Notes under the pieces: model-generated | What the model was told of the DNA's origin: nothing | Databases searched by the model: none | The model's input: the letters and a program-made list of their open reading frames with translations, nothing else | Assembly: GCF_001570565.1 (NCBI RefSeq) | Contig: NZ_BBXE01000051.1 | Location: 1 to 58,610, forward strand | Direction of reading: 5' to 3' | Length of the DNA stretch: 58,610 nt | Source of the DNA: Herbidospora yilanensis | Lineage (GTDB): Bacteria; Actinomycetota; Actinomycetes; Streptosporangiales; Streptosporangiaceae | Position numbers and translations under genes: made by a program | Part shown: positions 900 through 51,865 of the stretch, piece after piece | How positions within the stretch are numbered: position 1 is the first letter of the stretch | Layout: the number at the start of each line of letters is the position of its first letter

Positions 900-3869
900 T
901 CAGCGCCTCTTCAGCTCGCCGTACTCGCGGGCGCCCTGGTCGCGGAAGGTCTTCAGCGCCCGGTCGAGGGCGAGTCCGGCGGCCTCGCGGTCGCCCCTGG
1001 CCTCGTGGAGGCGGGCGAGGTCGCGTTCGGTGCGGGCCCGCCACAGCAGCACGTCGAGCTCCTCCCAGAGCTGGAGCGAGGCGGTCAGGCAGGCGTCGGC
1101 GTCGTCGAGCTGACCGCTCGCGAGGTGCAGTTCCCCGAGGGTGCGCAGGGTGACGCCGAGCCCCCACCGGTCCCCCATTGCCTGGCAGAGCGACAGCCCC
1201 TCCTCCAGGGCGGGCAACGCGACGCCGATCCGGCCGAGCCGGATCTCGGCCTTGGCGCGGGCCCGGATCGAGTACGCCTCCATCAGCGGGTCGCCGAGCC
1301 GCGTGAAGATCTCGCGCGCGGCCTCGGCCGCCTCGACGGCCTGGTCGTAGGCGCCCGTGGCGCGGTGGTAGAGGCTCATCGTGCGTAAGGTCAGCCCTTC
1401 GCCCCGGCGGCTGCCGGCGGCGCGGTAGCCGCGCAGGCAGCTCTCCAGCCCGGCCCACGCCTCCGGGAAGTCGCCGCGTTCCAGCCGGACCGAGGCGGCC
1501 ACCCGCTGCGGATAGTGGACGGCGGGGTCGTCGCCCAGCAGCGCGGTCGCGCCGTCGAGGAAGTGCAGCGCCTCGGCGAGGCGGCCGGTCTCGCGGCAGA
1601 TCACGCCGAGCGCGGCCAGCGCGACCGCCTGCCCACGGGCGTCGCCGAGGTCGCGGAAGGCGCTGAGCGCCTCATCGAGCACCTGCCGTCCCTCGGCGAA
1701 GCGGTCCTGGTCATACCGGAGGCGGCCCAGTTCGGCCAGCATGGTCGCCACGCCGTGGGGGTCGCCGGCACGCCGGGCGGCGGCCAGGGCGGCCTGGGTG
1801 ATGCGCTCGCGGGAGGCGAAGCGGTTGACGCCCAGGAACGACGGGCCCAGGCGCGCGGAGGCGAACCGGCAGACGAGTTCGTGCAGGCCGAGCGCCGCCG
1901 CGCGTTCGAGCCCGACGACGAGGGCGGGCTGCTCGAAGTCGAACCAGTCGTGGGGTGCGGCGAGCACCTGCGCGGCCAGGTCGGGCGAGACCTCCGCGCC
2001 CGTCGTGACGGGATCGGGGCGGCCGATCTCGTCGGAGGGGGCGTCGGCGCTCACCTGGTCGGCGAGCGCGAGCCAGCCGCCGAGCACCCGGCCGACCGCC
2101 GCCGCGAGGTCCTTGGCGGGCTCCTCGGCCTCGGCGCGTTCGCGGCCGTAGATGCGGACCAGGTCGTGCACGCGGTAGCGCGGCGTGCCGAGGTCGTCGA
2201 CCCGGGCGAAGTCGACGAGCTGGGCGTCGACGAGCCGTTCGACGGTGTCCTCGGCCTCGGCGGCGGGCTCGCCGGTCAGCCAGGCGACGATCCAGGCCGC
2301 GAACTCGGTCGCGCCCAGGTGACCGAGGCGGCGCAGGGCCCGCCGCGCGCCCGGGTCGAGGGCGCGGTAGCTCAGCTCGAACCCGGCGCGGACCTCCAGG
2401 TCGGCGATGGCCAGCTCGTCGAGGCGGCGGCGCTCGTCGGCGAGGCGGCCCGCGAGCAGCCGAAGCGGCCAGCGCTGCCGGGTGGCCAGCCGGGCCCCGG
2501 CGATGCGCAGCGCCAGCGGCAGCCGTCCGCACAGTTCGGCGATCTCGCGCGCCACCGGCTCCTCGGCCCTGACCCGCTCGGCCCCGACGATGCGTTCGAG
2601 CAGTTCCAGCGCCTCGTCGGCGTCCAGGACGTCCAGGTCGGCACGGCTCACGCCGCTGAGCCCGCCGAGCCGGTTCCGCGACGTGATCAGCACTCCGCAA
2701 CCGCCGCCCGGCAGCAGCGGCCGGACCTGCCGTTCGTCGGCGGCGTCGTCGAGCAGCACCAGCACCCGCCGCCCGGTGAGCAGCCGCCGGTAGAGCTCGG
2801 CCCGTTCGGTCGTGCCGGCGGGAACCGGGTCGGCGCCCAGCGCCTTCAGGAACAGTCCCAGCACCTCGCCGGGTTCGGCGGGCGTCTCGCTCATCCCGCG
2901 CAGCTCGGCGTGGAGCTGGCCGTCGGGGAACGCCGCCGCGATCCGGTGGGCGACGTGGGCGGCCAGCGCGGACTTGCCGCTGCCGCCCCGCCCGGCGACC
3001 ACCTGTACGGTGCCGGTCACCAGCGCCCCGGTGAGCGCGGTGGTCTCGGCGAGCCGCCCGGTGAAGTCGGCGGGCGGCGGCGGGAGCTGCGCGGGCGCGG
3101 CCACCCTCGGGCCGTGGCCGGACGGCGGCCCCTGGAGCAGGGGGTCGCCGCGCAGGATCGCGTGGTAGAGCGCGGCGAGCTCGGGGCCGGGGTCGAGGCC
3201 GAGTTCGTCCACGAGCACCTGGCGGCCCTCGCGGAAGGTGGCCAGGGCGTCCGACTGGCGGCCGAGGCGGTAGAGGGCGGTCATGTACTGGCCGCGCAGG
3301 CGTTCGTTGGCGGGGTGGCGGCCGACGAGGGCGGCCAGCTCGGAGACCAGGCGGCCGTGGTGGCCGAGGGCGAGCCCGGCGGCCATCCGCTCCTCGGTGG
3401 CGGTCAGCCGCAGCTCCTCCAGCCGGACCGCCTCCCCCGCGAGCCGGGTGGCCTCCAGTCCCGCCAGGGCCGGTCCCCGCCACAACGCGAGGGCGGCGTC
3501 GAGCAGGTCGGCGCCATCCTGCGGGGTGGCCGCCGCGCGGGCGCGGGTGACCAGGGCGTGGCAGCGGGCCGTGTCGAGGGCGTCCTCGGGGACCTGGGCC
3601 AGGTAGCCGGGGGCGCGGGTGAGGATGACGTCGGCGGCGCCGTGCCGGGCGAGGGCCTGTCTGAGCGTTTTGACGTAGGTCTGGATGGCCGCCTTGGCGG
3701 TGTCGGGCGGGTCGTCGGGCCAGATCACGTCGATGAGCCGGGCGGTCGGCACGACGTGGCCGTTCTCCAGCAGCAACGCCGCGAGCAACGTCCGTGGTTT
3801 GGTCCCGCCCAGCGGGACCGGCCCGCTTGCGGCGATGACTTCGATGGGTCCGAGCAGCCGAAACTCCAC
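900..3869 (-). CDS. SARP-type transcriptional regulator with NB-ARC and TPR domains (AfsR-like)
   Basis: The 989-residue protein starts at ATG 3869. Residues 1-95 form an OmpR-like winged-helix DNA-binding domain and about 95-240 a bacterial transcriptional activation domain (BTAD), together the SARP module. A P-loop (AGRGGSGKSALA, near residue 290) and a Walker B stretch (RRVLVLLDDAAD) define an NB-ARC/STAND ATPase of about 270 residues, and the last 350 residues are TPR-like helical repeats. Family members switch on secondary metabolism or morphogenesis in response to ATP and protein partners. No adjacent biosynthetic cluster is evident, so the target is unknown; it may act on the neighbouring secreted hydrolase or at a distance. 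The upstream 130 bp are unusually AT-rich around 3890-3910, consistent with a promoter. Confidence 0.9.
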   Translation of the reverse strand: MEFRLLGPIEVIAASGPVPLGGTKPRTLLAALLLENGHVVPTARLIDVIWPDDPPDTAKAAIQTYVKTLRQALARHGAADVILTRAPGYLAQVPEDALDTARCHALVTRARAAATPQDGADLLDAALALWRGPALAGLEATRLAGEAVRLEELRLTATEERMAAGLALGHHGRLVSELAALVGRHPANERLRGQYMTALYRLGRQSDALATFREGRQVLVDELGLDPGPELAALYHAILRGDPLLQGPPSGHGPRVAAPAQLPPPPADFTGRLAETTALTGALVTGTVQVVAGRGGSGKSALAAHVAHRIAAAFPDGQLHAELRGMSETPAEPGEVLGLFLKALGADPVPAGTTERAELYRRLLTGRRVLVLLDDAADERQVRPLLPGGGCGVLITSRNRLGGLSGVSRADLDVLDADEALELLERIVGAERVRAEEPVAREIAELCGRLPLALRIAGARLATRQRWPLRLLAGRLADERRRLDELAIADLEVRAGFELSYRALDPGARRALRRLGHLGATEFAAWIVAWLTGEPAAEAEDTVERLVDAQLVDFARVDDLGTPRYRVHDLVRIYGRERAEAEEPAKDLAAAVGRVLGGWLALADQVSADAPSDEIGRPDPVTTGAEVSPDLAAQVLAAPHDWFDFEQPALVVGLERAAALGLHELVCRFASARLGPSFLGVNRFASRERITQAALAAARRAGDPHGVATMLAELGRLRYDQDRFAEGRQVLDEALSAFRDLGDARGQAVALAALGVICRETGRLAEALHFLDGATALLGDDPAVHYPQRVAASVRLERGDFPEAWAGLESCLRGYRAAGSRRGEGLTLRTMSLYHRATGAYDQAVEAAEAAREIFTRLGDPLMEAYSIRARAKAEIRLGRIGVALPALEEGLSLCQAMGDRWGLGVTLRTLGELHLASGQLDDADACLTASLQLWEELDVLLWRARTERDLARLHEARGDREAAGLALDRALKTFRDQGAREYGELKRR

Positions 3870-39704: not shown

Positions 39705-42700
39705 CTACCAGCCGGTGTAGTTCACCTCGGAGCTGCGGAGGTGGTTCCCGAACACGGTGGCGAACTCCTGGGCGCCTCTCCTGGTGGGGTGCAGGGCGGA
39801 GCGGCTCGCGCACCGGCCGCCGTCGGCGAGGCAGCCGTCCCAGATGTCGGTGAAGTCGCCGGGACCGGTCTTGGTGAAGATCACTTTGTTGATCCACGGG
39901 TCGGCGTCACACGCCCCGTGACCGGTGAAGGCCGGGAGGGAGTCCGCGAAGGACACCTCGTTACCGGTGGCCCGCAGTCCCTGCACCGTGTTCTTCGCCT
40001 CGGTGACGAAGTGGCCGCCGAGCCGTTGCAACATTCCGATCTCGTCCTGGTCGAAGCGCTGGCAGATGGTGCCGCCGAGCACGTTCGGGTAGCCCATGAG
40101 GACGATCTTCGCCTTCTTCCCCCGGTTGCCGTTCTTGTTGTCCGTCTTGTTCTCGATCTGCCGGAGGATGTCGGCCACGTTGGCGGGGAGGCCGAACTCC
40201 ATCTTGGTGTTCAGGACGTCGGTGATGCGGGCCCTGAGCTGGTCCTCGTAGGGGCTGCCGCCGGCTTTGCAGTTGATCAGGTAGCAGCCGGCCAGGACGT
40301 CGGACCAGTCGGCGTCGTTGGCTCCGAGTGTCAGCGCGACCAGGGTCGTGTTCTTGGTCAGGAAGCCGCTTTCGAGCTGGGCCGCCTCCCGGAACCGTCC
40401 TTCCGCCTTCCCGCGATAGTCCGACCAGGCGCCCATCGGCTGATCCATGTACGCGTACTGGTCCACGAACACGTCCCGCGCGTCGGCGCCCGAGCAGGCC
40501 ACGAACGCGAAGTCCAGCCTCGGATCGAAGGAGTCGGCGAGCTGGCCGACGGTCTGGGTCTCGCCCGGGAGGACGGTCTGCCGGATCCAGGCGTCCGAGC
40601 TGCGGCGGCAGGCGTTCCAGCGCGGCGTCTGGTAGCCGAAGTCGGTCTCGGCGTAGTAGTTCCCGACGCCCTCACCCGAGGTGACGGAGTCGCCCATGGC
40701 GACGACGAAGTGCTTGGGCCGGTTCTTCAGCACCTGGAAGGCGACCGCGTCCCAGGAGACGGCGGCCGAGCCGTCGCCCTCCGGGTTCAGGTTGGTGAGC
40801 GACACCTCCGGCCGCCCGGCGAACTGGAAGACGCCCAGGTTGTACCACGCGTTCTGCTCCCGGCTCTGGCTGAGGTAACGGGTCTCCCGCACGTTGTTGC
40901 CCAGATGGATCGTGTACGGGGCCTGCTGGGTCTCCGCCCGCCGTTTCGGGATGTGGACCAGCACCCGGGCCCACCCGTTGATGTCCTGGTTCGGCTTCCA
41001 GGTGCCGGTCACCCGCATGACGTCGCCGTTCCCGGCGCTGGTGCGGGTGTACGCGAACCACTCGTGGCCGCCGAACCCGTTGCCGAGTTGCTGGAAGTCG
41101 GCACGGGCGGGCACCCGGCCGGCGGAGTCCTGGGCGAAGTCGAACGTCAGGGTGCCGCTGTTGGTCCAGCCGCTGTTGTCGCAGCCGCCGCGTACCGCCG
41201 GGACGGTGGTGTCGTCGACGATCAGGACCTTCGTCGTGTCGCCGCCGACGGAGGGCAGCCCGGGGGTCCGGCACATCGTCCACTGGTCGGTGGGTTCGAC
41301 GCGTTCGGTCGAGGCCCAGGTGGAGTCGTACCGGAGAGACGCCTCGTGCCCGCACGCCGACGTGCAGTCCTTCCACTCCTGGGAGAAGTGCCACCAGCAC
41401 TTGAAGTCGGAGCGCTGGCAGGTGCCGTGCCCGTTCCCCGTCGGCGGCGGCTGGCACTCGTTGCCCGGCGCGCAGAAGACGTTGTTGTCGACGATTCCCG
41501 TGTTGGAGATCGTCGGCACGATCATGGTGCGGTAACCCGGGGTGGTCCACCAGGCGTAGTTGTAGCCGCCTTCGGCGACGGTCTTGTTCTGGGCCGGGTC
41601 CCAGTAGGTCTTGGTGATCGGCCACGCCGCCCAGCCCAGGACCTTCTCCTGGTAGGGCCAGTCCTGCGGATGCGCCGCGTCGGCGTAGTTGTTGTCGTCG
41701 AGGAACGGGCGGCGGTCCGGCCGGTAGGTCGAGTTGGCGGGATTGTTCGTCCAGCCCACGCCCCACGCGCCGTTGTTCGGGGTGCCGTAGTTGTCGATCT
41801 TCCAGGCGTCGGCCTTGGCGTGCCAGCCGGAGTTGTACGCCCACACCGCCAGGTACCAGTTCTCGATCTTCGACGGGTCACCGTCGTGGACCTTCGCCTG
41901 GCCGTCGGTGTCGGTCCAGATCTGGTTCCACTTCTGGGCCAGGGTCGACATGCCCGCCGCGATGTTGGTGACGTAGTCGAGCGCCACCCGCTTCTGCGTG
42001 TTGGGGCTCCACTGGGACACGTCGCCGCGCATGTTGTCGGTCTGCTGGGAGATGCCGTAGCCGCAGTCGGCCTTGGTGAAGTCGACGTCCCAGTCGTTGG
42101 CCGGGTTGTCGTCGTAGACGTTGACGCCGTAGAAGTTGCCGACCAGCGGGTTGCCGGTCTCGCCCTCCAGCACGCTGCGCTGGGCCTGCCACAGGTTCGA
42201 CTCCTGCGCCAGGATGCCGAACATGATCGACACCGGGATCCGGCCGCCGCCCTGGAGGTCCGGCACGGGGAACTCGGTCTGCGGGTTCCACCCTGGCAGG
42301 CCCGAGCCCTTCCAACCGTTCGGGCGGGTCACGTTCAGCCGGTTCTTGAAGACGAGCTGGTCGACGGCCCACTCCACCTGCCGCCAGTGCGGCTGGTAGA
42401 CCTGGATCGCCGGGTCGTTGCGCGGGATCGCGCACCGGTAGCCGGTGTCGACGGTCCCGGCGACCGAGGTGGTCACGGCGGGGCCCACCACCCTGAGGGC
42501 CGGCGCCGGCTTCGGGTTGACTGCGCGGCCGGAGGCCGCCGCCGGGAGCAGGTCCGCGCCCGGCTGCACCTCGAAGCCGACGTCGGCCTTGGTCGGTACG
42601 ACCTGTGCGGTGATGTCGACGGGCTCGGCGTCGGGCACCTCGGGGCTGACGCCGGGTGTGTCGTCGCCCAGCGCCGTCGCGTCCGGCGGTCCGGCGGGCG

Positions 42701-43748
42701 GGCCGCCGGGGCCCGCGCGCAGCCCGCGCATCGCCGCGCCGGTGACCGCCAGGCCGCCCTCGGAGGAGACGTCGGCGGAGGCCGGGGCGTCCAGGAGCGA
42801 CACGCCCTGCGGCAGGGCGGCCTGCCGGTCGGCCCGGCCGACGAGGAAGACACGGCCGTTCGTGCCCGACTGGACCGTCAGCTCGCCCAGGCGGCCCGAC
42901 GCCAGCTCGCGGGTGGTCCCGCCCAGATGGTGACGGACCCTGACCGACGCGCCGTCGCGGGTGGCGAAGGCCACGCCGCCGTCGGCGGTCGCGCGCAGGT
43001 CGAAGGGCACCGATTCGGTCGCGGCGAGTCGCACGAGCTCGCCACCCGCCCGGACCTCGACGAGCCGGGCGCCGTCGGCCGCGACCACCGTGTCCCCCAC
43101 GGGGACGGCCGAGGTGAGCTGACCGGCGGTCACGACGGCCCTGGTCACGCGCTTGGCGGCGGTGTCGACCGTGAGGAGGCGGGTGGTGCCGTGCCGCTCG
43201 CTGACACCCTGGGTGAGCGCGACCGTGTCACCGGCGCCGCAGCCCGGGTTGAAGTAGGCGAGGGTCACCTGGTCGCGGAGCTTGGTGACGGCTCCCGTCT
43301 TGGCGTCGATGATCGCGGCGAACGCGCCCCGGCTGAACAACCAGTCGCGGTTGGTGAAGTGGCGCGGCGCGTAGACGGCCACGATCCTGGTGCCGGATCC
43401 GGTAAGGCAGGCGTTGCCGATCCACTGGTCGGTGTCCATGCCCGGCTCGGTGAGCGTGGCGACGGTCCGCCACCGGTAGCCCGAGGCGGCCGTCGCCGTG
43501 AACACGTGGAACCCGGTCGCGTCACCGGCCGTGGTGACGGCGAGGTCGGTCGACTTCTGCCAGTTCGCACCGAGCACGCGGTCACGCAACTCCGGCTGGA
43601 CGGACGACAGGTCGAGGTGCTGCGGCGACGGGGCCGGAGTGGGCGCGGGCGGCTCGGCCAGCGCGGGGGCCGTGGAGGTGAGCAGACTGGCGGCGATCGT
43701 GGCGCCGATGAGGAGCAGCCGCCGGGGGTGTCTCATAGCCGGGAGCAT
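39705..43748 (-). CDS. Very large secreted SGNH/GDSL hydrolase with multidomain N-terminus
   Basis: I take the start at ATG 43748 or 43736 (about 1345 residues) because a normal Sec signal peptide follows (RHPRRLLLIGATIAASLLTS, cleavage near PALA-EP). Residues about 30-370 are repeat-rich and propeller-like. Residues about 450-720 contain a lysozyme-like segment (SIMFGILAQESNLWQAQ, GISQQTDNMRGD) resembling lytic transglycosylases. A beta-rich carbohydrate-binding-like part follows. The last 350 residues are an SGNH esterase: AMGDSVTSGEG, LTLGANDADW and the His block SALHPTRRG. It may act on cell-wall polymers and their acyl groups. Function is inferred. Confidence 0.8.
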   Translation of the reverse strand: MLPAMRHPRRLLLIGATIAASLLTSTAPALAEPPAPTPAPSPQHLDLSSVQPELRDRVLGANWQKSTDLAVTTAGDATGFHVFTATAASGYRWRTVATLTEPGMDTDQWIGNACLTGSGTRIVAVYAPRHFTNRDWLFSRGAFAAIIDAKTGAVTKLRDQVTLAYFNPGCGAGDTVALTQGVSERHGTTRLLTVDTAAKRVTRAVVTAGQLTSAVPVGDTVVAADGARLVEVRAGGELVRLAATESVPFDLRATADGGVAFATRDGASVRVRHHLGGTTRELASGRLGELTVQSGTNGRVFLVGRADRQAALPQGVSLLDAPASADVSSEGGLAVTGAAMRGLRAGPGGPPAGPPDATALGDDTPGVSPEVPDAEPVDITAQVVPTKADVGFEVQPGADLLPAAASGRAVNPKPAPALRVVGPAVTTSVAGTVDTGYRCAIPRNDPAIQVYQPHWRQVEWAVDQLVFKNRLNVTRPNGWKGSGLPGWNPQTEFPVPDLQGGGRIPVSIMFGILAQESNLWQAQRSVLEGETGNPLVGNFYGVNVYDDNPANDWDVDFTKADCGYGISQQTDNMRGDVSQWSPNTQKRVALDYVTNIAAGMSTLAQKWNQIWTDTDGQAKVHDGDPSKIENWYLAVWAYNSGWHAKADAWKIDNYGTPNNGAWGVGWTNNPANSTYRPDRRPFLDDNNYADAAHPQDWPYQEKVLGWAAWPITKTYWDPAQNKTVAEGGYNYAWWTTPGYRTMIVPTISNTGIVDNNVFCAPGNECQPPPTGNGHGTCQRSDFKCWWHFSQEWKDCTSACGHEASLRYDSTWASTERVEPTDQWTMCRTPGLPSVGGDTTKVLIVDDTTVPAVRGGCDNSGWTNSGTLTFDFAQDSAGRVPARADFQQLGNGFGGHEWFAYTRTSAGNGDVMRVTGTWKPNQDINGWARVLVHIPKRRAETQQAPYTIHLGNNVRETRYLSQSREQNAWYNLGVFQFAGRPEVSLTNLNPEGDGSAAVSWDAVAFQVLKNRPKHFVVAMGDSVTSGEGVGNYYAETDFGYQTPRWNACRRSSDAWIRQTVLPGETQTVGQLADSFDPRLDFAFVACSGADARDVFVDQYAYMDQPMGAWSDYRGKAEGRFREAAQLESGFLTKNTTLVALTLGANDADWSDVLAGCYLINCKAGGSPYEDQLRARITDVLNTKMEFGLPANVADILRQIENKTDNKNGNRGKKAKIVLMGYPNVLGGTICQRFDQDEIGMLQRLGGHFVTEAKNTVQGLRATGNEVSFADSLPAFTGHGACDADPWINKVIFTKTGPGDFTDIWDGCLADGGRCASRSALHPTRRGAQEFATVFGNHLRSSEVNYTGW

Positions 43749-43749
43749 C

Positions 43750-43776
43750 GGCAGGCCGTCTTGACACGGCCTTGCC
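43750..43776. promoter_or_regulatory. Inverted repeat between SGNH and clpP genes
   Basis: Arms GGCAGGCCGT and ACGGCCTTGCC (one-base bulge) flank CTTGAC. It covers a TTGACA at 43761 that could be a promoter element. Confidence 0.4.
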
Positions 43777-43826
43777 ATGTGGCGTCGCGGCACGGGGCGG
43801 CCACGTTCCGCGCGCTGCTCTGAGCG

Positions 43827-43845
43827 GATCCGCCGCAGGCGGATC
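43827..43845. promoter_or_regulatory. Putative PopR operator, GATCCGCC-GCA-GGCGGATC
   Basis: A perfect 8-3-8 inverted repeat 39 bp upstream of the clpP start. As I recall, the Streptomyces lividans PopR site also has a GCC-N3-GGC core. Binding is inferred. Confidence 0.55.
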
Positions 43846-43884
43846 GGGTCGATATCGCACCGGGCGGCCCCACATGCTGGACGC

Positions 43885-44511
43885 ATGAGCGAAGATTCGA
43901 AAGCCCCTCTGTTCGACGTGCATTTGCGGCGTCGGCTCTACGAGCAGCGAACGCTCGTTCTCGACGGACCACTCGACGACGACAACGGCACCCTTCTCAC
44001 CACGCAGCTGATAACCCTCGCCATGGAGGACCCCTCTGCCGACATCGCGTTGTGGATCCATTCGCCGGGTGGTTCCGTGCCGTCGATGCTGGCGATCCGT
44101 GACGTCATGCGGCTGATCCCGTGTGACGTGTCGACGCTGGTGCTGGGCATCGCCTACAGCGCCGGTCAGTTCCTGCTCTCCTCGGGCGCACGGGGGAAAC
44201 GCCGTGCCCTCCCCCATGCGCGGGTGCTGATGCACCAGGGGTCGGCCGGCATCGGCGGCACCGCCGTCGACATCGAACTGCAGGCCAGCGACCTGCGCCA
44301 CACCCGTGACACGGTGCTCGGCCTCATCGCCGAAGACACCGGCCAGCCCGTGGAGCGCATCTTCGACGACTCCCTGCACGACCGCTGGTATACGGCCCGG
44401 GAGGCGCTCGACTACGGCTTCATCGATTCGATCGTCAGCGATTTCGGCGAGATCGCGCCGCTCGCCCACCATCGGCTCGGTTTCGGCGTCACCGAAGGAG
44501 CGGCCCGATGA
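43885..44511 (+). CDS. ClpP-family protease subunit, active-type (clpP3-like)
   Basis: ATG 43885 gives 208 residues. The catalytic triad is recognisable: Ser in GIAYSAGQFLLSSG, His in HARVLMHQG and Asp in the YGFIDSIVSDF region. ClpP forms a 14-subunit barrel fed by ClpX or ClpC. The next clpP gene overlaps by 4 bp and encodes a Ser-less subunit, and a popR-like gene follows, the arrangement associated with the secondary clpP3-clpP4 operon of Streptomyces, expressed when primary ClpP1P2 is insufficient. Confidence 0.9.
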   Translation: MSEDSKAPLFDVHLRRRLYEQRTLVLDGPLDDDNGTLLTTQLITLAMEDPSADIALWIHSPGGSVPSMLAIRDVMRLIPCDVSTLVLGIAYSAGQFLLSSGARGKRRALPHARVLMHQGSAGIGGTAVDIELQASDLRHTRDTVLGLIAEDTGQPVERIFDDSLHDRWYTAREALDYGFIDSIVSDFGEIAPLAHHRLGFGVTEGAAR

Positions 44512-45113
44512 GCACGTACACGATCCCCAACGTCATCGCCCGCAATTCGCGGGGCGAGCGTATTCTCGACGTCTATTCACATCTGCTCACCGAGCGAATC
44601 GTCTACCTGGGCACGGCGATCGACGCGGGTGTCGCGAACGCGCTCATCGCGCAGTTGATTTTCCTGGAATCCGACAATCCCGATGCCGAGATCCAGTTCT
44701 ACATCAACTGCGAGGGCGGCGACCCGAGCGCGATGCTCGCGATCTACGACACGATGCGCTACATCCGCCCGAAGGTCGCCACGACCTGCGTCGGCCAGGC
44801 CATCGCGGTGGGCGCGGTGCTTCTCGCGGCGGGCGCGGAAGGGAAACGGGCCGCCCTGCCGCACGCACGGGTGGTCCTGCACCAGCCGGCCGCCCAGGGG
44901 CGCGGCGCGATCCCCGATCTCATCCTGCAGGCCGACGAGGTCGTGCGTGTCCGGGCCGACATCGAGCGCATCCTGTCGCGTCACACGGGCCAGACCGTCG
45001 AGACACTGCGCGCCGACACCGACCGCGACCGGGTCTTCACCGCGCCGGCGGCGATGGAATACGGGCTCCTCGACCAGATCATCGACGAGCACTCGCGCAC
45101 CCGGTCTCGCTAG
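44508..45113 (+). CDS. ClpP-like subunit lacking the catalytic serine (clpP4-like)
   Basis: The 201-residue protein starts in an ATGA overlap. It aligns along the whole ClpP fold, including FYINCEGGDPSAMLAIYDTM, the His in VVLHQPAAQG and the Asp in YGLLDQIIDEH. At the nucleophile position, where E. coli ClpP has GQAASMGA, this protein has GQAIAVGA: Ser is Ala. It therefore cannot hydrolyse peptides by the normal mechanism and probably forms mixed barrels with the upstream subunit, as ClpR does in chloroplasts. Its TAG stop lies within a duplicated piece of popR. Confidence 0.88.
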   Translation: MSTYTIPNVIARNSRGERILDVYSHLLTERIVYLGTAIDAGVANALIAQLIFLESDNPDAEIQFYINCEGGDPSAMLAIYDTMRYIRPKVATTCVGQAIAVGAVLLAAGAEGKRAALPHARVVLHQPAAQGRGAIPDLILQADEVVRVRADIERILSRHTGQTVETLRADTDRDRVFTAPAAMEYGLLDQIIDEHSRTRSR

Positions 45114-45214
45114 GCGGCCGGCCGGGCGGCGCCCGCCGACATGCCACCCTGCGCCGTAGGTGTCACGCTAGGCGGCCAGCAGGGTGGCCCCCGCCGACAT
45201 GCCGCCCTGCGCCG
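45109..45214. repeat. Direct duplication of the popR 3' end (48 bp, 58-bp offset)
   Basis: Copy A (45109-45156) and copy B (45167-45214, the real popR end) differ at only a few bases. Copy A, read in the popR frame, still ends Ala-Ala-stop and encodes AQGGMSAGAARPAA. Its stop triplet overlaps the clpP4-like stop on the other strand. Confidence 0.8.
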
Positions 45215-45503
45215 CCCGCAGGTTCTCGGTCACGGCGGAGGTCAGCTCGACCAGGGTGACGTCGAGTGCCCCGGCGACCGCGGCGATCATCTCGCTCGAC
45301 GGCTCTTTGACGCCGCGTTCCATCTCGGAGAGGTACTGCGGCGAGACCCCGGCGCGGCGCGCGGTCTCCGCCAGCTTCTCACCACGCTCGTGGCGGATCT
45401 CCCGCAGGCACTCACCGAGCGCCTCCCGCCACAGCGGCTCGCGCGCGGGCTCCGGCTCGCTTCGGTCGCTCACCCGCCGCAGCGGCGTAACAGAGGAGGC
45501 CAT
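45168..45503 (-). CDS. popR: PopR-like XRE-family regulator with C-terminal Ala-Ala degron
   Basis: The 111-residue protein has one Cro/CI-type HTH (LAETARRAGVSPQYLSEMERG) in the middle and ends LLAA. In Streptomyces lividans, PopR activates clpP3-clpP4 and is itself degraded by ClpP1/P2, with the final two alanines required; the tail, size and neighbouring clpP pair match. Here popR is convergent with the clpP genes rather than co-directional. When the main protease is overwhelmed PopR should accumulate and induce the secondary clpP operon. The symbol is assigned by context and tail, not by database search. Confidence 0.75.
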   Translation of the reverse strand: MASSVTPLRRVSDRSEPEPAREPLWREALGECLREIRHERGEKLAETARRAGVSPQYLSEMERGVKEPSSEMIAAVAGALDVTLVELTSAVTENLRAAQGGMSAGATLLAA

Positions 45504-45682
45504 GCCTCACCATAAACAGTCACCGCGCCGCCGTCGCGGCGGCTTCGCGCACAGCACAACCAGATCTGCCGTCGCCATTGGAGACTGATGGGTCATGCCC
45601 CCGGGGGATGGAACGGTCCTTGTCGTGTCCCCGTCCGGGTGAGAAGCTGCGCAGGCATTTCCCCGGCGTAGATGGAGGATTC

Positions 45683-46411
45683 GTGACGACTCCGGCGCAA
45701 GCCAAGATCAGTGCCATGGCGGCGATCAATGAGGGGCTGCTGCTCACCCCGCTCGCGACGGCGAAGGTCTGGAATCCGTCGAAGTCGATCACCGAGCCGA
45801 TGACCCCCTCCTTCTCGGGCAGCCCGGGGTTGGTCGGGGTGCCCGAGTTCGTCGCCGACAAGGTCACCTTCGCCGCTCCGGGTACGCAGAAGCAGAACCT
45901 GGTCCTGCTCGCGAAGAAGGCCGGCCTCATCGACAGTGAGGCGAACTGGGCCCAGATGACCTCGGAAGTGGTCGAGGAGTTACGGGTGCGGGCCAAGAAG
46001 GCGTACGTCACCTACGGCCGGGAGTTGCTGAAGACCATGAAGGGCGGTGTCTGCACGATGTTCACCTGCGCCGCCATCGGATGGGTGGCCGAGAACGCCG
46101 AATCGCTCCCCGATGACGCCGTGGTGGAGTTGTTCGCGCACGTCGATTCGGGTGCGGGCCACGGGTTCGCGGTCGTCGATCGCAACCGCACGGGAAATGC
46201 CGACAAGGTCGACGAGTGGGGAGACCTGTGTTTCGTCGTCGATCCCTGGTTCGCCCGTCATCGGCGTACTCCTCCGGGCACGGATCATGTCAAGAATCTC
46301 GTGGTGAACGATCCCTTCCATCTGGCGGCGTACGTCGACTTTCTCAAGGAACCGAAGGCGAGGGTCTCCCAGTTGACGTTCACGAAGGCGGAATTGCCGA
46401 CGCTGCTCTGA
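45683..46411 (+). CDS. Papain-like Cys-His-Asp fold protein of unknown role
   Basis: GTG 45683 follows a GGAGG site and gives 242 residues; the frame is open further upstream without a site. I do not recognise a named family. Three blocks are spaced like a papain/transglutaminase-type triad: GGVCTMFTCAAIGW (Cys124), GHGFAVVDRN (His160) and WGDLCFVVDPWF (Asp187). No signal peptide is visible. Similar C-H-D patterns occur in YopT-like proteases, toxins and deamidases. It precedes the RiPP cluster by 249 bp on the same strand but a hairpin at 46428 separates them, so membership in the cluster is uncertain. Confidence 0.6.
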   Translation: MTTPAQAKISAMAAINEGLLLTPLATAKVWNPSKSITEPMTPSFSGSPGLVGVPEFVADKVTFAAPGTQKQNLVLLAKKAGLIDSEANWAQMTSEVVEELRVRAKKAYVTYGRELLKTMKGGVCTMFTCAAIGWVAENAESLPDDAVVELFAHVDSGAGHGFAVVDRNRTGNADKVDEWGDLCFVVDPWFARHRRTPPGTDHVKNLVVNDPFHLAAYVDFLKEPKARVSQLTFTKAELPTLL

Positions 46412-46454: not shown

Positions 46455-46561
46455 CCGGCGAATGCGATGAAGAGAAGTAATCTCTCACCATCCTGGAATT
46501 CGCCGGTTCGGAAATCTTACGGGCCGTTATCGTCGCAGGTCCCAGAGGTGGACATTACTTA

Positions 46562-46619
46562 TTGTCGCCGACCGCTCGTTTGTCGCCGAACTGGACGTGA
46601 TCAACCGGTCTGCTTATCG
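46562..46619 (+). promoter_or_regulatory. RiPP promoter region with direct repeat TTGTCGCCGA
   Basis: Two identical 10-bp copies at 46562 and 46580 (18-bp period) lie in an AT-richer stretch 72-99 bp before the precursor start. TGGACG at 46592 and TTATCG at 46614 (16-bp spacer) form a possible promoter. Confidence 0.4.
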
Positions 46620-46660
46620 TGACGATCGTCCCCGAAATCGCGCGAGAAACGGGAGAGCAG

Positions 46661-46816
46661 ATGGCGAATGACGAACCGCTCCACCTTGATCTGAATTCGC
46701 TCGACGTGACGACGGTCGAGCTTCCGGGCGAGGATCTCGTCGAAGCCCTGGGCATGGGGCTGGGCAACACCGAAGTCGGAGCTTCCGGCATCGGGCGTAC
46801 GAGCTGGTTGATCTAG
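46661..46816 (+). CDS. Pyritide/thiopeptide-like RiPP precursor peptide, cysteine-free core
   Basis: ATG 46661 follows GGGAGAG and gives 51 residues. The acidic leader (LHLDLNSLDVTTVELP, then EDLVEAL) resembles thiopeptide leaders, and its end GNTEVGA followed by Ser is the same junction as in thiomuracin and GE2270 precursors. The predicted core is SGIGRTSWLI: Ser42, Thr47 and Ser48 can be dehydrated, and there is no Cys, so no thiazoles or lanthionines can form. The LanB gene starts 11 bp after the stop. Dha from Ser42 and Ser48 are the expected partners of a pyridine-forming cycloaddition that would release the leader. Inferred, not shown. Confidence 0.82.
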   Translation: MANDEPLHLDLNSLDVTTVELPGEDLVEALGMGLGNTEVGASGIGRTSWLI

Positions 46817-46827
46817 GTCTTCCCGGC

Positions 46828-49221
46828 ATGGTCTCGGCGCGTCGGGGTCCGCAGGGACGCGTCGAGATCGACGCGGCCGTGGTCGTGAGGGTGGCCGCGC
46901 TGCCGGTGGCGGCCCTGGCGGAGTCGAGGTGCGCGGCCTCGTGGGGACGCGTACAGGAGATTCTGGCCCTTCGTGAACGGCTGGCGGTGGAGGGGCGGCG
47001 GCTCGCCGTCGAGTTGGAGCCGGTGATCGGGGCGGCGGAGGCCGGGCCCGAGCGGGCGGCGCTGGTGGCGCTGCGGCGGGCGTTGTACAACACGAGACGG
47101 GGCCGTCCGGTGGAGGTGGCCGGCCTGGGCCGGCGTATCGCGGCCTGGTTCGAGGATCTCGATCGGCATGACGAGCTGGTCCGGGGGTTGCCGGAACTGC
47201 TCGACCGGGAGTCCCGCGGGGCCGTCGAGGTGCTGCGCCGGTGGGTCGCGACCGATGTCTTCGGTTATGGGGTGCTTCAGGCGGGACCGGCGATGTCCGA
47301 CGCGTTGCGCCGGTGGCTGGCCGAGCCGCCCGGTGGCGTGCCGTCGCGCCGGCTCGTGTTGCGGCTCGCCCGGTATCTGGCGCGGGTGGTCGCGAAGACC
47401 AGCCCTCACTCGACCTTCATGATGACGACGCTCGGGCGGTGGGGCGACGACGATGTGCCGGTCCGGTGGGAGGGGGCGTGGGGGTGGCGCAGCGCGGTCG
47501 AGCCGAACGTGCCGCTGCTGCTGCGGCTGCTCTCCGATCTGGCCCGGACCGACGATGAGCTGGCCGCGCTGTTCGAGGTCAGGGCCAATCCGAGCCTCGC
47601 CGAGGACGACGGCCGCCTGTGGTTCCTGACCGGCCGGGAGGACGCGTTCACCGGTGTCGCCGTGTCGGCGGCGCTGCGGCGGCGGCTGCGCCCGCCTTTC
47701 GGCGATCCGCGCGAGCGGGCCGGCCTGGTCGAGCTGGGGGTGCTGGAGCTGCTGCCCCCGGTCGCCGACCAGGCCGATTCCCACCTGACCGATCTGGTCG
47801 ATCGCCTTGGGACGCATCCGGCGGGCAAGGCGCTGGCCGTCGTGCGGGACGTGCTGGCCCGGTACCCGCGAGCGGTCGGGGTGGACGAACGGGCGGCGCT
47901 GGGCGGGCAGGTGCGGGCCGCCTTGTCCACGCTGGGCGCGGATCTGCCGGACCGTAATCTCTTCCACGAGAACGCCGTGGTCGGTTCGCCGGGTCCCCGG
48001 CTGGGCCTGGACGCCTGGCGGCCCGCGCTGGACGACCTGCGGACGGTCGCCGACTTCGCGGCGGTCTTCGACCGCGACCGGTACGCGCGGGCGCTCGCGG
48101 CCGACCTGTTCGCGGAGCGGATCGGCGCGGGCGCGCAGGTGCCGTTCGGCCGGTTCCACCGAATGCTCGGGTCGTCGGCCGAACTGCGGGCTTTGACGCA
48201 TCCGTGGCAGACGCCCGCCGTGCTGCGGGACGCGCAGCTCGCGGCGTTGCGCGCGTTGCCGTCCGGCGTGATCGATCCGGCGGTGCCGGCCGGTCTGGCC
48301 ACCGGCCGAGCCGTGGGATCGGTGTCGTGTTTCGTGCAGACGATCGGGCCGCCGGACGAGACGCCGGTACGGCTGGTGCTCAACGGCTTCGGCCCGGGGC
48401 ATGGGGCGATGCGCAGCCGGGTGCACCGCCTGCTGAGGGTCGCGGGGGTTCGCGTCGGCGAGAACCGGCCGCTCGGGGTGGAGCACGGACTGCCGGTGGA
48501 GATCAGCGGGTTGTTCGGCAACAACGTCAATCTGCGGTCGCCGGTGGCGTCGCTGGAATTCGGCTATCCGGGTGTGGTTCCGCGCGGGGACGTCGTCGGC
48601 CTGGGAGAACTGGCCGTGCGGCACGGCCCGGACGGTCTCGTCCTGGTGCGGGCCGGAGACGGCGTCCGCATTCGGCCGGTCTACACGGGGATGGTGGCGC
48701 CTCTGCTGTTGCCGCGTACGGCGCGGCTTCTGCTGCAGTTCTTCGGAGACGTCCCCAGTCCGGTGATGGAGCTCGCGGAGATCTTCTCCCGGCCGCCCGA
48801 GGTCGTTCCGGACCGGATCGTGCGGACGGAACGGGTGTCGGTGGGGCTGGTCACCGTGGCCCGTGCCGCCTGGTACGTCCCGGCGGGTGAGATCCCGCGC
48901 CGGGGAGGCGGTTCGGCGGCGGCGCATCTGCTCGCGCTGGCCGCCTGGTTCGCCGGGCACGGGCTGCCGGAGCGGTGTTTCGTGTCCTCGCGCGTTCCCG
49001 GTGCGCCGGTCCATGAGCGGTTGCGAACGTCGCGGCTGGCCAAGCCGACCTATCTCGATCTCGCCGACCCCGCCCTGGTGGCGCTGTTCGACCGGGGGCT
49101 GGACACGAGCGGTCCGATGGTCGTCTTCCACGAGCCGCTCCCGGACTTCGACGCGGCCGTCGACGTCGGTGGAGGGGGCCGTCACGTGAGCGAATACGTG
49201 GTGGAGGTGGGCCGTGCCTGA
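46828..49221 (+). CDS. Split LanB dehydratase, tRNA-dependent glutamylation protein
   Basis: The 797-residue product matches the N-terminal glutamylation half of class I lanthipeptide dehydratases (thiopeptide TbtB type). Markers are KTSPHSTF near residue 191, followed by SVSCFVQTIG, GNNVNLRSPVASLEFGYP and a late CFVSSRVPG-HERLRTSRLAKPTYLDL region that contacts glutamate/tRNA. There is no C-terminal elimination domain; that function is in the next gene. It should transfer Glu from Glu-tRNA to Ser/Thr of the core. It overlaps the downstream gene by 8 bp. Confidence 0.92.
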   Translation: MVSARRGPQGRVEIDAAVVVRVAALPVAALAESRCAASWGRVQEILALRERLAVEGRRLAVELEPVIGAAEAGPERAALVALRRALYNTRRGRPVEVAGLGRRIAAWFEDLDRHDELVRGLPELLDRESRGAVEVLRRWVATDVFGYGVLQAGPAMSDALRRWLAEPPGGVPSRRLVLRLARYLARVVAKTSPHSTFMMTTLGRWGDDDVPVRWEGAWGWRSAVEPNVPLLLRLLSDLARTDDELAALFEVRANPSLAEDDGRLWFLTGREDAFTGVAVSAALRRRLRPPFGDPRERAGLVELGVLELLPPVADQADSHLTDLVDRLGTHPAGKALAVVRDVLARYPRAVGVDERAALGGQVRAALSTLGADLPDRNLFHENAVVGSPGPRLGLDAWRPALDDLRTVADFAAVFDRDRYARALAADLFAERIGAGAQVPFGRFHRMLGSSAELRALTHPWQTPAVLRDAQLAALRALPSGVIDPAVPAGLATGRAVGSVSCFVQTIGPPDETPVRLVLNGFGPGHGAMRSRVHRLLRVAGVRVGENRPLGVEHGLPVEISGLFGNNVNLRSPVASLEFGYPGVVPRGDVVGLGELAVRHGPDGLVLVRAGDGVRIRPVYTGMVAPLLLPRTARLLLQFFGDVPSPVMELAEIFSRPPEVVPDRIVRTERVSVGLVTVARAAWYVPAGEIPRRGGGSAAAHLLALAAWFAGHGLPERCFVSSRVPGAPVHERLRTSRLAKPTYLDLADPALVALFDRGLDTSGPMVVFHEPLPDFDAAVDVGGGGRHVSEYVVEVGRA

Positions 49222-50038
49222 CGGCTGGATCTCGCTGCACGTCTTCCACCGGTCCGACACCGATCTGCTGCTCACCACGGCCGTCCACCGCCTGGTCGGG
49301 GAACTGGAGCTCGGCGGGTACTTCTTCCTCCGGTACTGGGAGGGCGGCCCTCACCTGCGGTTGCGCCTGCTGCCCCGGATCCCCGGCGACGCGGCGGCGA
49401 TCGAGAAGCACGCCACGGCCGCGCTGGAGAAGCATCTGGCGGCCCATCCGACGACGGGCCCGTGGGACCGTGAGCGGTACACGCTGCTCGCCGGGGAATG
49501 GGCACGGCGGGAGGGCCTGGCCGCCTACGACCGGCGGCTGCGGCCCGACGACCACGTGGAGGCGATCCCCTACCGGCCCGAATACGTCACGTTCGGCGGC
49601 CCCGAGGCGGTCGCCGCCGTCGAGCGGCATTTCGCCGACTCCAGCCGGATCGCGCTGGCGGTGCTGCGGGGCGAGCCCGACCGGCGACGCCGGCTGGGTC
49701 ACGCCTTCACAGCGCTGACGCTCACCCGCCTGGCCGCGCCAGACCTCCGCCGCCGGGATCGGCTCCCGGCGTCCGCGCGGCAGGCCGCGTTGTTCGTCAG
49801 CCAGCGGGAGGCCCTCACCGCGCAGGCGGAACGTTGCCGGCACATCGCCGAGGGCGCCGACGACGACGGTCCGCCCGGTGTGTGGTGGCGGTCGATCGAC
49901 GCCCTGCGCCGGGCCGGAGTGCGGGCGGACGTGCTGGACCGGTGCGCGCACCTGTTCTGCAACCGGCTCGGGTTGTCGATCGCGGAGGAGGCCCATGTGC
50001 GTTACCTGACCGCCGCCACCAGGGAGGGAACCGGGTGA
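49214..50038 (+). CDS. SpaB_C-domain protein, glutamate elimination (TbtC-like)
   Basis: The GTG at 49214 gives 274 residues. The protein begins GWISLHVFHRSDTDLLLTTA and contains FFLRYWEGGPHLRLRLLPRI, the SpaB_C ('thiopeptide-type bacteriocin biosynthesis') signature. Stand-alone copies act as the elimination half of split dehydratases, removing glutamate from glutamylated Ser/Thr to give Dha/Dhb. Order and size match the elimination gene of thiopeptide clusters. It overlaps the next gene in a GTGA. Confidence 0.85.
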   Translation: MPDGWISLHVFHRSDTDLLLTTAVHRLVGELELGGYFFLRYWEGGPHLRLRLLPRIPGDAAAIEKHATAALEKHLAAHPTTGPWDRERYTLLAGEWARREGLAAYDRRLRPDDHVEAIPYRPEYVTFGGPEAVAAVERHFADSSRIALAVLRGEPDRRRRLGHAFTALTLTRLAAPDLRRRDRLPASARQAALFVSQREALTAQAERCRHIAEGADDDGPPGVWWRSIDALRRAGVRADVLDRCAHLFCNRLGLSIAEEAHVRYLTAATREGTG

Positions 50039-51129
50039 ACGACGTCGGCTGGCGTGCCGTCCAGATCCGCTACTACGAGCAGGCCAAGGACGATCTGATC
50101 CTCGACTGCGTCCGCCCGCTCGTCGAGCGTCTCGACGGCCTGATCGGGCGGCCGTACATCGTGCGGCACTGGCGCCGGGGGCCGCACCTGCGGCTGAACC
50201 TCCGCGCGACCGCGCGGGACTGGGATCGGGAGATCCTTCCCGTCGCGACGGAGACGATCACCGGTTATCTGCGCGACCATCCCTCCACCGCGCGGCTCGA
50301 CGAACGCGACCATCTGGCGGCCCACCGGCTGCTGGCCGCGCGGGAAGACGAGACCGGGCCGTTGCAGCCCTGGTATCCGGACAACTCCCTTCAGACCGAG
50401 CCCTACGACGACCGTCTGCACATCTTCGGCGGCACGGCTCTCGCCGACCTGGTCGACGCCGCCGCCGCGGAGAGCACCCGCCTGACCTTCGGCACGCTCG
50501 ACCGGATCCGCCGGGGTGAGCTCACGCTGTTCGAGGTCGCCATCGATCTCATGGTCGCCGTGGCGCACGTCAGCGTCCCGCCTATCGCGCGCGGCTACAT
50601 GTCCTACCGCTCGCACGTGGCGGCGGCCACCGCGGACTTCGAGAACCGGGACGCGGTCACGGCCGCCTTCGAGGCCCGGTACAGAGCGAACGCCCCGGCT
50701 CTGCGCGCCGCGGTGGTCGGCGTGGTGGAGTCGGTCGACGGCGGCGAGCCCGCGGCGCACGTACAGGACTGGATCGCCTTCACCCGCCGCCAGAAGGAGC
50801 TCGCCCTCCCGCTGCTGGCCGCCGGGAAGATCGACCTGGACGCCTCGGACCGGCGGGTGGACCGGCGTCATCCGGTCGACTATTTCGACGTGCTCCTGTC
50901 CACCGACCGCTACCGCACCGAGGTGCTGGGCTCGGACTGGTTCCGCGCCCACCGTCTGGTGGTCAACATGCTGTACGCGCATCTGGCCCGGCTCGGTGTC
51001 ACCCCGCTCCAGCGGCACCTGCTCTGCCATCTCGTCGCGTCGGCGGTGGAGGAGGAGTATGGCGTCTCTCCGCTGGAGAAGGCCCGCGACTACACTGTCG
51101 TGCCCGCACCGGGATCAGCGGCGGGGTAG
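50035..51129 (+). CDS. Second SpaB_C-domain protein, probable pyridine synthase (TbtD-like)
   Basis: GTG 50035 gives 364 residues, about 90 more than the preceding elimination protein. It shares its fold (YIVRHWRRGPHLRLNLRA) but is divergent, with a long insert around residues 90-125 and a distinct C-terminal half. In thiopeptide operons the third such gene, of this size, is the formal [4+2] cycloaddition enzyme that forms the pyridine and expels the leader. That assignment rests on position, size and the lack of other enzymes; a second elimination enzyme is the alternative. Its 3' end overlaps the TetR gene by 15 bp. Confidence 0.72.
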   Translation: MNDVGWRAVQIRYYEQAKDDLILDCVRPLVERLDGLIGRPYIVRHWRRGPHLRLNLRATARDWDREILPVATETITGYLRDHPSTARLDERDHLAAHRLLAAREDETGPLQPWYPDNSLQTEPYDDRLHIFGGTALADLVDAAAAESTRLTFGTLDRIRRGELTLFEVAIDLMVAVAHVSVPPIARGYMSYRSHVAAATADFENRDAVTAAFEARYRANAPALRAAVVGVVESVDGGEPAAHVQDWIAFTRRQKELALPLLAAGKIDLDASDRRVDRRHPVDYFDVLLSTDRYRTEVLGSDWFRAHRLVVNMLYAHLARLGVTPLQRHLLCHLVASAVEEEYGVSPLEKARDYTVVPAPGSAAG

Positions 51130-51796: not shown

Positions 51797-51865
51797 AGAT
51801 ACCTGCGGTACGTTGACAACGTACCGCAGGTATCTTAATGTCGCCAGCACAAGATACCTTCGGTA
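51797..51865. promoter_or_regulatory. Triple TetR operator array
   Basis: A perfect inverted repeat with 18-bp arms (51797-51814, 51818-51835, 3-bp spacer) is followed by a third partial copy at 51852. Each unit has a core TACC-N3-GGTA, at 51800, 51822 and 51855, 22 and 33 bp apart, i.e. on one helical face. Confidence 0.8.

What the first reader, a model, noticed from the sequence alone, without database searches (positions are those of the whole stretch)
46661..51129. Candidate pyritide-type RiPP cluster: thiopeptide machinery without thiazole formation
A 51-residue precursor is followed by three overlapping genes in thiopeptide order: LanB glutamylation half (797 aa), SpaB_C elimination protein (274 aa) and a larger SpaB_C protein of pyridine-synthase size (364 aa). 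No YcaO, azoline dehydrogenase, LanC or transporter is present. Thiopeptide TbtB/C/D are known to need only these three steps for dehydration and pyridine formation, and cysteine-free 'pyritides' made this way have been described, as I recall, from Micromonospora. The locus would be a compact new member with its own core.
Basis: partly seen in the sequence, partly recalled or inferred. Interest (0 to 1): 0.95.

Follow-up and report, generated by a model that had tools for sequence, protein, structure and literature searches.

The report
Compact pyritide peptide gene cassette
An actinobacterium carries a four-gene unit that very probably turns a small gene-encoded peptide into a ring closed by a pyridine; it is a further member of a recently described natural-product class, the pyritides.

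Summary
The window is a whole 58,610-bp contig of a (by inference) Herbidospora genome. It holds a Cys-free 51-aa precursor, a LanB glutamylation protein, an elimination protein and a pyridine synthase (46661-51129). The last passes NCBI's TbtD/PbtD equivalog cut-off (383.8 vs 325 bits) and groups with the D protein of the Micromonospora rosaria pyritide locus (100/99). The precursor has the pyritide leader end GLGNTEVGA and core S-GIGRT-S-WLI, with the Ser1/Ser7 spacing and WLI tail of the reconstituted pyritide A2. Predicted product: 17-membered macrocycle, [M+H]+ 1018.547. Nine of 341 family genomes carry this D type. No YcaO was found in 10 such loci, against 40 of 51 other D loci. No flanking gene is conserved across genera. 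In H. mongoliensis the cassette (4.6 kb) sits between two genes that are adjacent in a congener. A tempting ClpP pair next door is genus-conserved and lies on another contig when the cassette is elsewhere, so its proximity is no sign of self-resistance. The class was published in 2021-2022 and its authors tabulated natural variants: this is a new member of a known kind. Added here: cassette bounds, presence/absence and predicted natural rings of 17-23 atoms.

The parts
46471..46660 (+). 5' non-coding part of the cassette: a block from about 46471 and a block at about 46612-46658, similar in other pyritide loci
   Evidence: 79% over 43 nt and 81% over 47 nt with H. mongoliensis; blastn hits in 3 of 4 relatives compared, none in G037; the first block starts where the H. 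mongoliensis insertion starts
46661..46816 (+). Precursor peptide (A), 51 aa; leader to GLGNTEVGA, core SGIGRTSWLI, no Cys
   Evidence: 80-86% identical orthologues in four loci and dN/dS 0.10-0.13; NF033399 thiazolyl_GetA 20.3 bits, below its cut-off of 29
46828..49221 (+). B: LanB glutamylation (split dehydratase) protein, 797 aa
   Evidence: Pfam Lant_dehydr_N 3.1e-14; PDB 6ec7/6ec8 8.3e-50; 41% identical (best segment) to the M. rosaria B protein
49214..50038 (+). C: glutamate-elimination protein, 274 aa
   Evidence: Lant_dehydr_C 4.7e-35; TIGR03891 84.8 bits, cut-off 48.45; 42% identical (best segment) to the M. rosaria C protein; no PDB match at E 0.001
50035..51129 (+). D: [4+2] pyridine synthase, 364 aa; Tyr314 aligns with the PbtD tyrosine that is replaced in 8ejy and 8ejz
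   Evidence: NF045556 383.8 bits, cut-off 325; PbtD/TbtD structures 5w98 and 5wa3; clade with the M. rosaria D protein 100/99; 50% identical to it

Best explanation
This is a complete pyritide biosynthetic cassette. B, with Glu-tRNA(Glu), would glutamylate Ser1 and Ser7 of the core SGIGRTSWLI, and C would eliminate glutamate to give two dehydroalanines. D would recognise the leader and the C-terminal WLI, join the two dehydroalanines by a formal aza-[4+2] cycloaddition, and expel water and the leader as its C-terminal amide, so no protease is needed. The product would be a 17-membered pyridine macrocycle with an exocyclic Trp-Leu-Ile tail and intact Thr6, calculated [M+H]+ 1018.547. Shown here: gene content, family membership, precursor conservation, cassette bounds. 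Inferred from the reconstituted MroBCD system: each chemical step, the identity of the reacting residues, and Thr6 being left alone. Export route and biological role are unknown.
For: Equivalog hit for D and PDB TbtD/PbtD matches. One clade with the M. rosaria D protein. The leader end GLGNTEVGA and the following SG are identical to MroA1/MroA2, and the Ser1-Ser7 spacing and WLI tail equal MroA2 (chemistry from PMC9247985). No YcaO found in 10 of 10 loci of this type, against 40 of 51 other D loci with one. Purifying selection. Nine of 341 family genomes, the own genome included, carry a D of at least 417 bits, and the next best D scores 264 bits. In H. mongoliensis the cassette is bounded by two genes that are adjacent in H. 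cretacea.
Against: No product or expression data. Thr before the second Ser made MroD a poorer catalyst on test substrates (6 of 10 poor or non-substrates), though the authors note that this Thr is prevalent in natural variants and may suit other homologues (PMC9247985). No exporter or immunity gene could be linked to the cassette, and no sigma-70-like promoter was found over it. N. spiralis, a relative with the same machinery, has one Cys in its core.
Confidence: 0.93

Rival explanations
1. A remnant of a thiopeptide cluster that lost its azole genes and no longer makes a product.
For: The same genome holds what looks like a decayed thiopeptide-type locus on C27: a C/D-like reading frame with no B or YcaO found, while two congeners have B, C, D and YcaO at theirs. 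D of this type is akin to thiopeptide D proteins.
Against: All four frames are intact and under purifying selection. Of the 11 precursors read in the 10 loci, 10 have no Cys. The type forms one clade with a pathway reconstituted in vitro (PMC9247985).
Confidence: 0.04
2. A class I lanthipeptide-like or other dehydroamino-acid peptide, with the 50035 protein acting as a second elimination domain.
For: C and D share the Lant_dehydr_C domain.
Against: D passes the pyridine-synthase equivalog cut-off and C does not. No LanC on the contig and no Cys in the core.
Confidence: 0.02
3. The product inhibits ClpP, and the ClpP pair at 43777-45113 is a self-resistance copy.
For: Two ClpP genes lie 1.5 kb upstream and are additional to a pair on C36.
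Against: The pair is conserved in all six congeners examined (ClpPa 92-96%), of which only G006 has a D of this type; there pair and cassette lie on different contigs. No ClpP match in the 22 other loci (20 D loci, 4 of them of the pyritide type) and none between the window's ClpP genes and the flanks of the 9 other pyritide loci.
Confidence: 0.02

Closest known systems
Pyritide A1/A2 pathway MroA1-A2/B/C/D of Micromonospora rosaria (Hudson 2021, not held, known from citations; Nguyen 2022, PMC9247985)
   Same: Same gene order; Cys-free precursor; identical leader end GLGNTEVGA and S-G start of the core; WLI tail and Ser1-Ser7 spacing of MroA2; no YcaO found; one D clade.
   Different: One precursor found instead of two; ring residues GIGRT in place of GFFGR; proteins only 41-50% identical; Thr before the second Ser.
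Thiomuracin TbtB/C/D and GE2270 PbtD (cluster names recalled)
   Same: Split LanB pair plus pyridine synthase; the PbtD tyrosine replaced in 8ejy/8ejz aligns with Tyr314.
   Different: D about 34% identical to TbtD; no azole machinery found, and the core has no Cys.
Homologous cassettes in Sphaerisporangium, Nonomuraea, Microbispora and H. mongoliensis
   Same: Same four genes; D 55-77% identical.
   Different: Cores differ; predicted rings of 17, 20 and 23 atoms; flanks not shared between genera.

Membership tests
Pyritide (azole-free pyridine macrocycle RiPP) | Pyridine synthase of the TbtD/PbtD/MroD type | tested here: met
   383.8 bits vs cut-off 325; clade with the M. rosaria D protein 100/99
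Pyritide (azole-free pyridine macrocycle RiPP) | Split LanB pair (glutamylation plus elimination proteins) | tested here: met
Pyritide (azole-free pyridine macrocycle RiPP) | Precursor with two Ser spaced for a ring, leader ending GNTEVGA, and a WLI-type C-terminus | tested here: met
   against PMC9247985
Pyritide (azole-free pyridine macrocycle RiPP) | No azole-forming genes in the cluster | tested here: met
   YcaO found in 0 of 10 loci vs 40 of 51 others; own YcaO genes only on contig C22
Pyritide (azole-free pyridine macrocycle RiPP) | Product is a pyridine macrocycle released from leader amide | not testable with these tools
   needs enzyme assay and mass spectrometry
Thiopeptide | YcaO-dependent azoles from Cys in the core | tested here: not met
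   no Cys in the precursor; no YcaO found in the window
Class I lanthipeptide | LanC cyclase and Cys-containing core | tested here: not met
   LanC-like genes only on other contigs; no Cys

The most novel reading that the evidence does not exclude
Pyritide A-B-C-D is a self-contained, horizontally moving 4.6-kb unit that builds and releases a macrocycle with no dedicated protease, exporter, immunity gene or regulator, and whose natural products span 17-, 20- and 23-membered rings beside the 14- and 17-membered ones of M. rosaria. Its role would then be one that needs no self-protection, for example signalling or a target inside other cells that the producer lacks, rather than thiopeptide-like antibiosis.
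Probability: 0.3. Interest if true: 0.5.

Novelty: new member of a known kind. Interest (0 to 1): 0.33.

Why it matters
Pyritides are used as a platform for making macrocycles, but the work I could read rests on the M. rosaria enzymes. A second, well-bounded native cassette with its own core, and relatives with larger predicted rings and Thr before the second Ser, gives natural enzymes to test where MroD performed poorly. The presence/absence difference between congeners shows which DNA makes up the unit. I saw no biological role stated for the class in the passages I read, so that question is open as far as I know.

Tried and rejected
ClpP self-resistance: the neighbouring ClpP pair suggested ClpP as the target. 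Rejected because the pair is present in all six congeners examined, ClpPa at 92-96% identity. It is followed by the XRE gene in five of them; in G002 the XRE gene was not found although about 2 kb of contig remain. In H. mongoliensis (inferred name of G006) pair and cassette lie on different contigs.

Conserved neighbours: an all-against-all comparison of flanking ORFs (third-position G+C filter, hits above 60 bits) of 10 pyritide loci found strong sharing only between two Microbispora genomes; hits between genera were 28-40% identical and at scattered positions, so no conserved transporter, protease or immunity gene was seen. The frame just upstream (45578-46411) has no Pfam or NCBIfam hit, was found in 2 genomes of 89 searched besides its own, and has no counterpart beside the other pyritide loci.

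Promoter scan: no sigma-70-like site. Repeat search around the cassette: 34 direct families (20 shown) and 32 inverted pairs (25 shown), nearly all imperfect and short; the only perfect one shown is a 19-nt inverted repeat at 51797-51835. Plasmid collection: D has 3 weak hits, none of this type. Papers: no held paper has all four terms TbtD, PbtD, active site and cycloaddition. No structure prediction was run, because sequence matches to solved TbtD/PbtD were already clear.

Full report
Observation. Pfam gives Lant_dehydr_N for B and Lant_dehydr_C for C and D. The window is the whole contig C51 of the assembly. The genus is Herbidospora by inference: a same-genus genome (G006) has a contig of the same length as a named H. 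mongoliensis record.

Identity of the enzymes. D passes NCBI's equivalog for the thiopeptide pyridine synthase, 383.8 bits against a cut-off of 325. C scores 58.8 on that model and passes TIGR03891 instead. B has no NCBIfam match. D matches solved PbtD and TbtD, and B matches 6ec7/6ec8. C had no PDB match at E 0.001. Two PbtD structures, 8ejy and 8ejz, carry Ala and Phe where PbtD of 5w98 has Tyr; that position is Tyr314 here and Tyr in all 15 D proteins of the alignment. A review states that an active-site tyrosine helps the final aromatisation (PMC10880069, passages); that this is the same tyrosine is my inference.

Identity of the precursor. It reads ...VELPGEDLVEALGMGLGNTEVGA | SGIGRTSWLI. 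Nguyen 2022 (PMC9247985; parts 1-3 of 4 of the text read) print MroA1 as ...GGLGNTEVGA|SGWLGSWVI and describe MroA2 as reacting at Ser1 and Ser7 with a WLI tail. Both precursors are found in the M. rosaria record (L067). The window core has the Ser1-Ser7 spacing and the WLI tail of MroA2. NF033399, a thiomuracin/GE37468-type precursor model, scores 20.3 bits, below its cut-off of 29, and no Pfam family matches.

Relatives. Of 341 genomes of the family, 37 have a D-like match at E 1e-60; at most 5 candidates a genome were scored. Nine, the own genome included, score 417 bits or more, and the next score is 264. A scan of genome contigs with two short peptide patterns returned 59 loci, six of them at 49% identity or more, M. 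rosaria included; records near the window's own may be left out there. For the tree I had 61 D rows: L098 and L118 fell out as 300 aa or shorter, and L106, L119 and L120 were left out beforehand. On the 59 rows the ten pyritide D proteins lie on one side of one branch, support 100/99, in 100% of 200 bootstrap trees. The root is drawn at the midpoint, so direction of change is not shown. Tblastn with three YcaO queries found none in 10 pyritide loci (17.9-21 kb each, the window whole) but found YcaO in 40 of 51 other loci (L068-L118). The 11 without are L073, L076, L084, L085, L086, L089, L094, L098, L106, L110 and L117; several of these lack a B hit or lie at contig ends.

Cores and predicted products (the G186 core was printed there and its ring counted by me). 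Window SGIGRTSWLI; H. mongoliensis SGYMRTSWVV; Nonomuraea G235 SGIARTSWLI; Sphaerisporangium SGITGRTSWLI and SGLTGRTSWLI; N. spiralis SGCTSGKSWLI; Microbispora SGAWTSRTSWLV, SGTWTSSKSWLV and SGTWTSGKSWLV (G186). With the paper's 14 and 17 atoms for A1 and A2 as the scale, and the Ser before Trp as the reacting one, these give 17, 17, 17, 20, 20, 20, 23, 23 and 23. The longer cores have a further Ser or Thr inside, so these ring sizes are predictions. N. spiralis has one Cys; the other precursors have none. The window product is calculated at [M+H]+ 1018.547 as core residues minus two waters minus ammonia; that formula is my own derivation from loss of leader amide and water.

Selection. Nei-Gojobori dN/dS between the window and four relatives is 0.10-0.13 for the precursor, 0.31-0.40 for B, 0.29-0.47 for C and 0.33-0.38 for D.

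Cassette bounds and movement. In H. mongoliensis the left and right flanks of the cassette (L063 up to 6416 and from 11044) match H. cretacea at 88% and 89% over 3.3 and 3.7 kb. The two matches lie directly next to each other there (ending at 3250 and starting at 3255 of L160), so 4,627 bp are present in one species and absent in the other. The right match begins about five codons before the stop of D, which overlaps the start of the next gene. Which state is ancestral is not shown. A first upstream block shared with other pyritide loci starts at about window 46471, at the corresponding left bound; blastn finds it in 3 of 4 relatives and finds nothing in G037. In the window the cassette stands at another place, downstream of a genus-conserved clpP-clpP-XRE module. 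None of the six congener stretches that hold the module shows a cassette gene; in G002 only 2 kb beyond the module could be read. No flanking gene is conserved across genera. I take A-B-C-D plus about 190 bp as the unit.

How it most likely works. By analogy with the reconstituted MroBCD: two-site recognition of leader and C-terminal tripeptide, glutamylation and elimination at Ser1 and Ser7, then [4+2] closure with loss of water and leader amide. Every chemical step is inferred here; none was measured.

ClpP lead. The ClpP pair at 43777-45113 would be an attractive hint at a target. One search shows that it is additional to a pair on C36. But searches show it in all six congeners examined, and in H. 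mongoliensis it is on another contig than the cassette, so proximity here carries no information about the target.

Novelty. The word pyritide occurs in 13 held papers; I read most of one (PMC9247985) and passages of seven others. A search combining the word with Herbidospora, Sphaerisporangium, Microbispora and Nonomuraea found 89 papers with at least two of the five terms; the 10 listed do not hold the word pyritide, and the other 79 were not seen. The library lacks the founding paper and most subscription papers, supplements could not be opened, and Nguyen 2022 refer to a table of natural variants. I therefore cannot say that this precursor is unlisted. The finding is real and correctly interpreted; it is a further member of a known class, with moderate interest from the cassette's clean bounds and larger predicted rings.

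Noticed in passing
window 43777-45503: Accessory clpP-clpP pair (found in all six congeners examined) with an XRE regulator on the other strand (found in five of six); distinct from the pair on contig C36.
   Followed up: yes
window 45578-46411: A 277-aa reading frame with no Pfam or NCBIfam hit; by eye it has Cys, His and VVDPW motifs that could be papain-like. Found in 2 genomes of 89 searched besides its own.
   Followed up: partly
L036 14553-16376 (own genome, contig C27): A second D-like gene, 38% identical to D, in one frame with a partial C; no B or YcaO was found in that 17.7-kb stretch, whereas H. cretacea and H. mongoliensis (inferred names) have B, C, D and YcaO. It looks like a decayed thiopeptide locus.
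   Followed up: partly
L073 6202-11062 (Actinomadura oligospora): B, C and D genes with a Cys-containing candidate precursor (ends ...TEMAASCGHREVGFPHCGSCRAPYDGEHDES) but no YcaO found in the 21-kb locus, which is not at a contig end.
   Followed up: no
L064 6275-6475 (Nonomuraea spiralis): The pyritide core SGCTSGKSWLI contains a Cys although no YcaO was found in the 21-kb locus.
   Followed up: no
window 46619-46632: Near-palindrome GTGACGATCGTCCC shortly before the precursor start; in H. mongoliensis the aligned stretch reads GTGACGATCGTCAC, a perfect palindrome. Possible operator, seen by eye.
   Followed up: no
window 39705-43886: A 1393-aa frame on the minus strand with a Golvesin_C match, overlapping the start of the ClpP frame on the other strand.
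   Followed up: no
window 51797-51835: Perfect 19-nt inverted repeat at the 5' ends of the divergent TetR-family and SDR frames, possibly a TetR operator.
   Followed up: no
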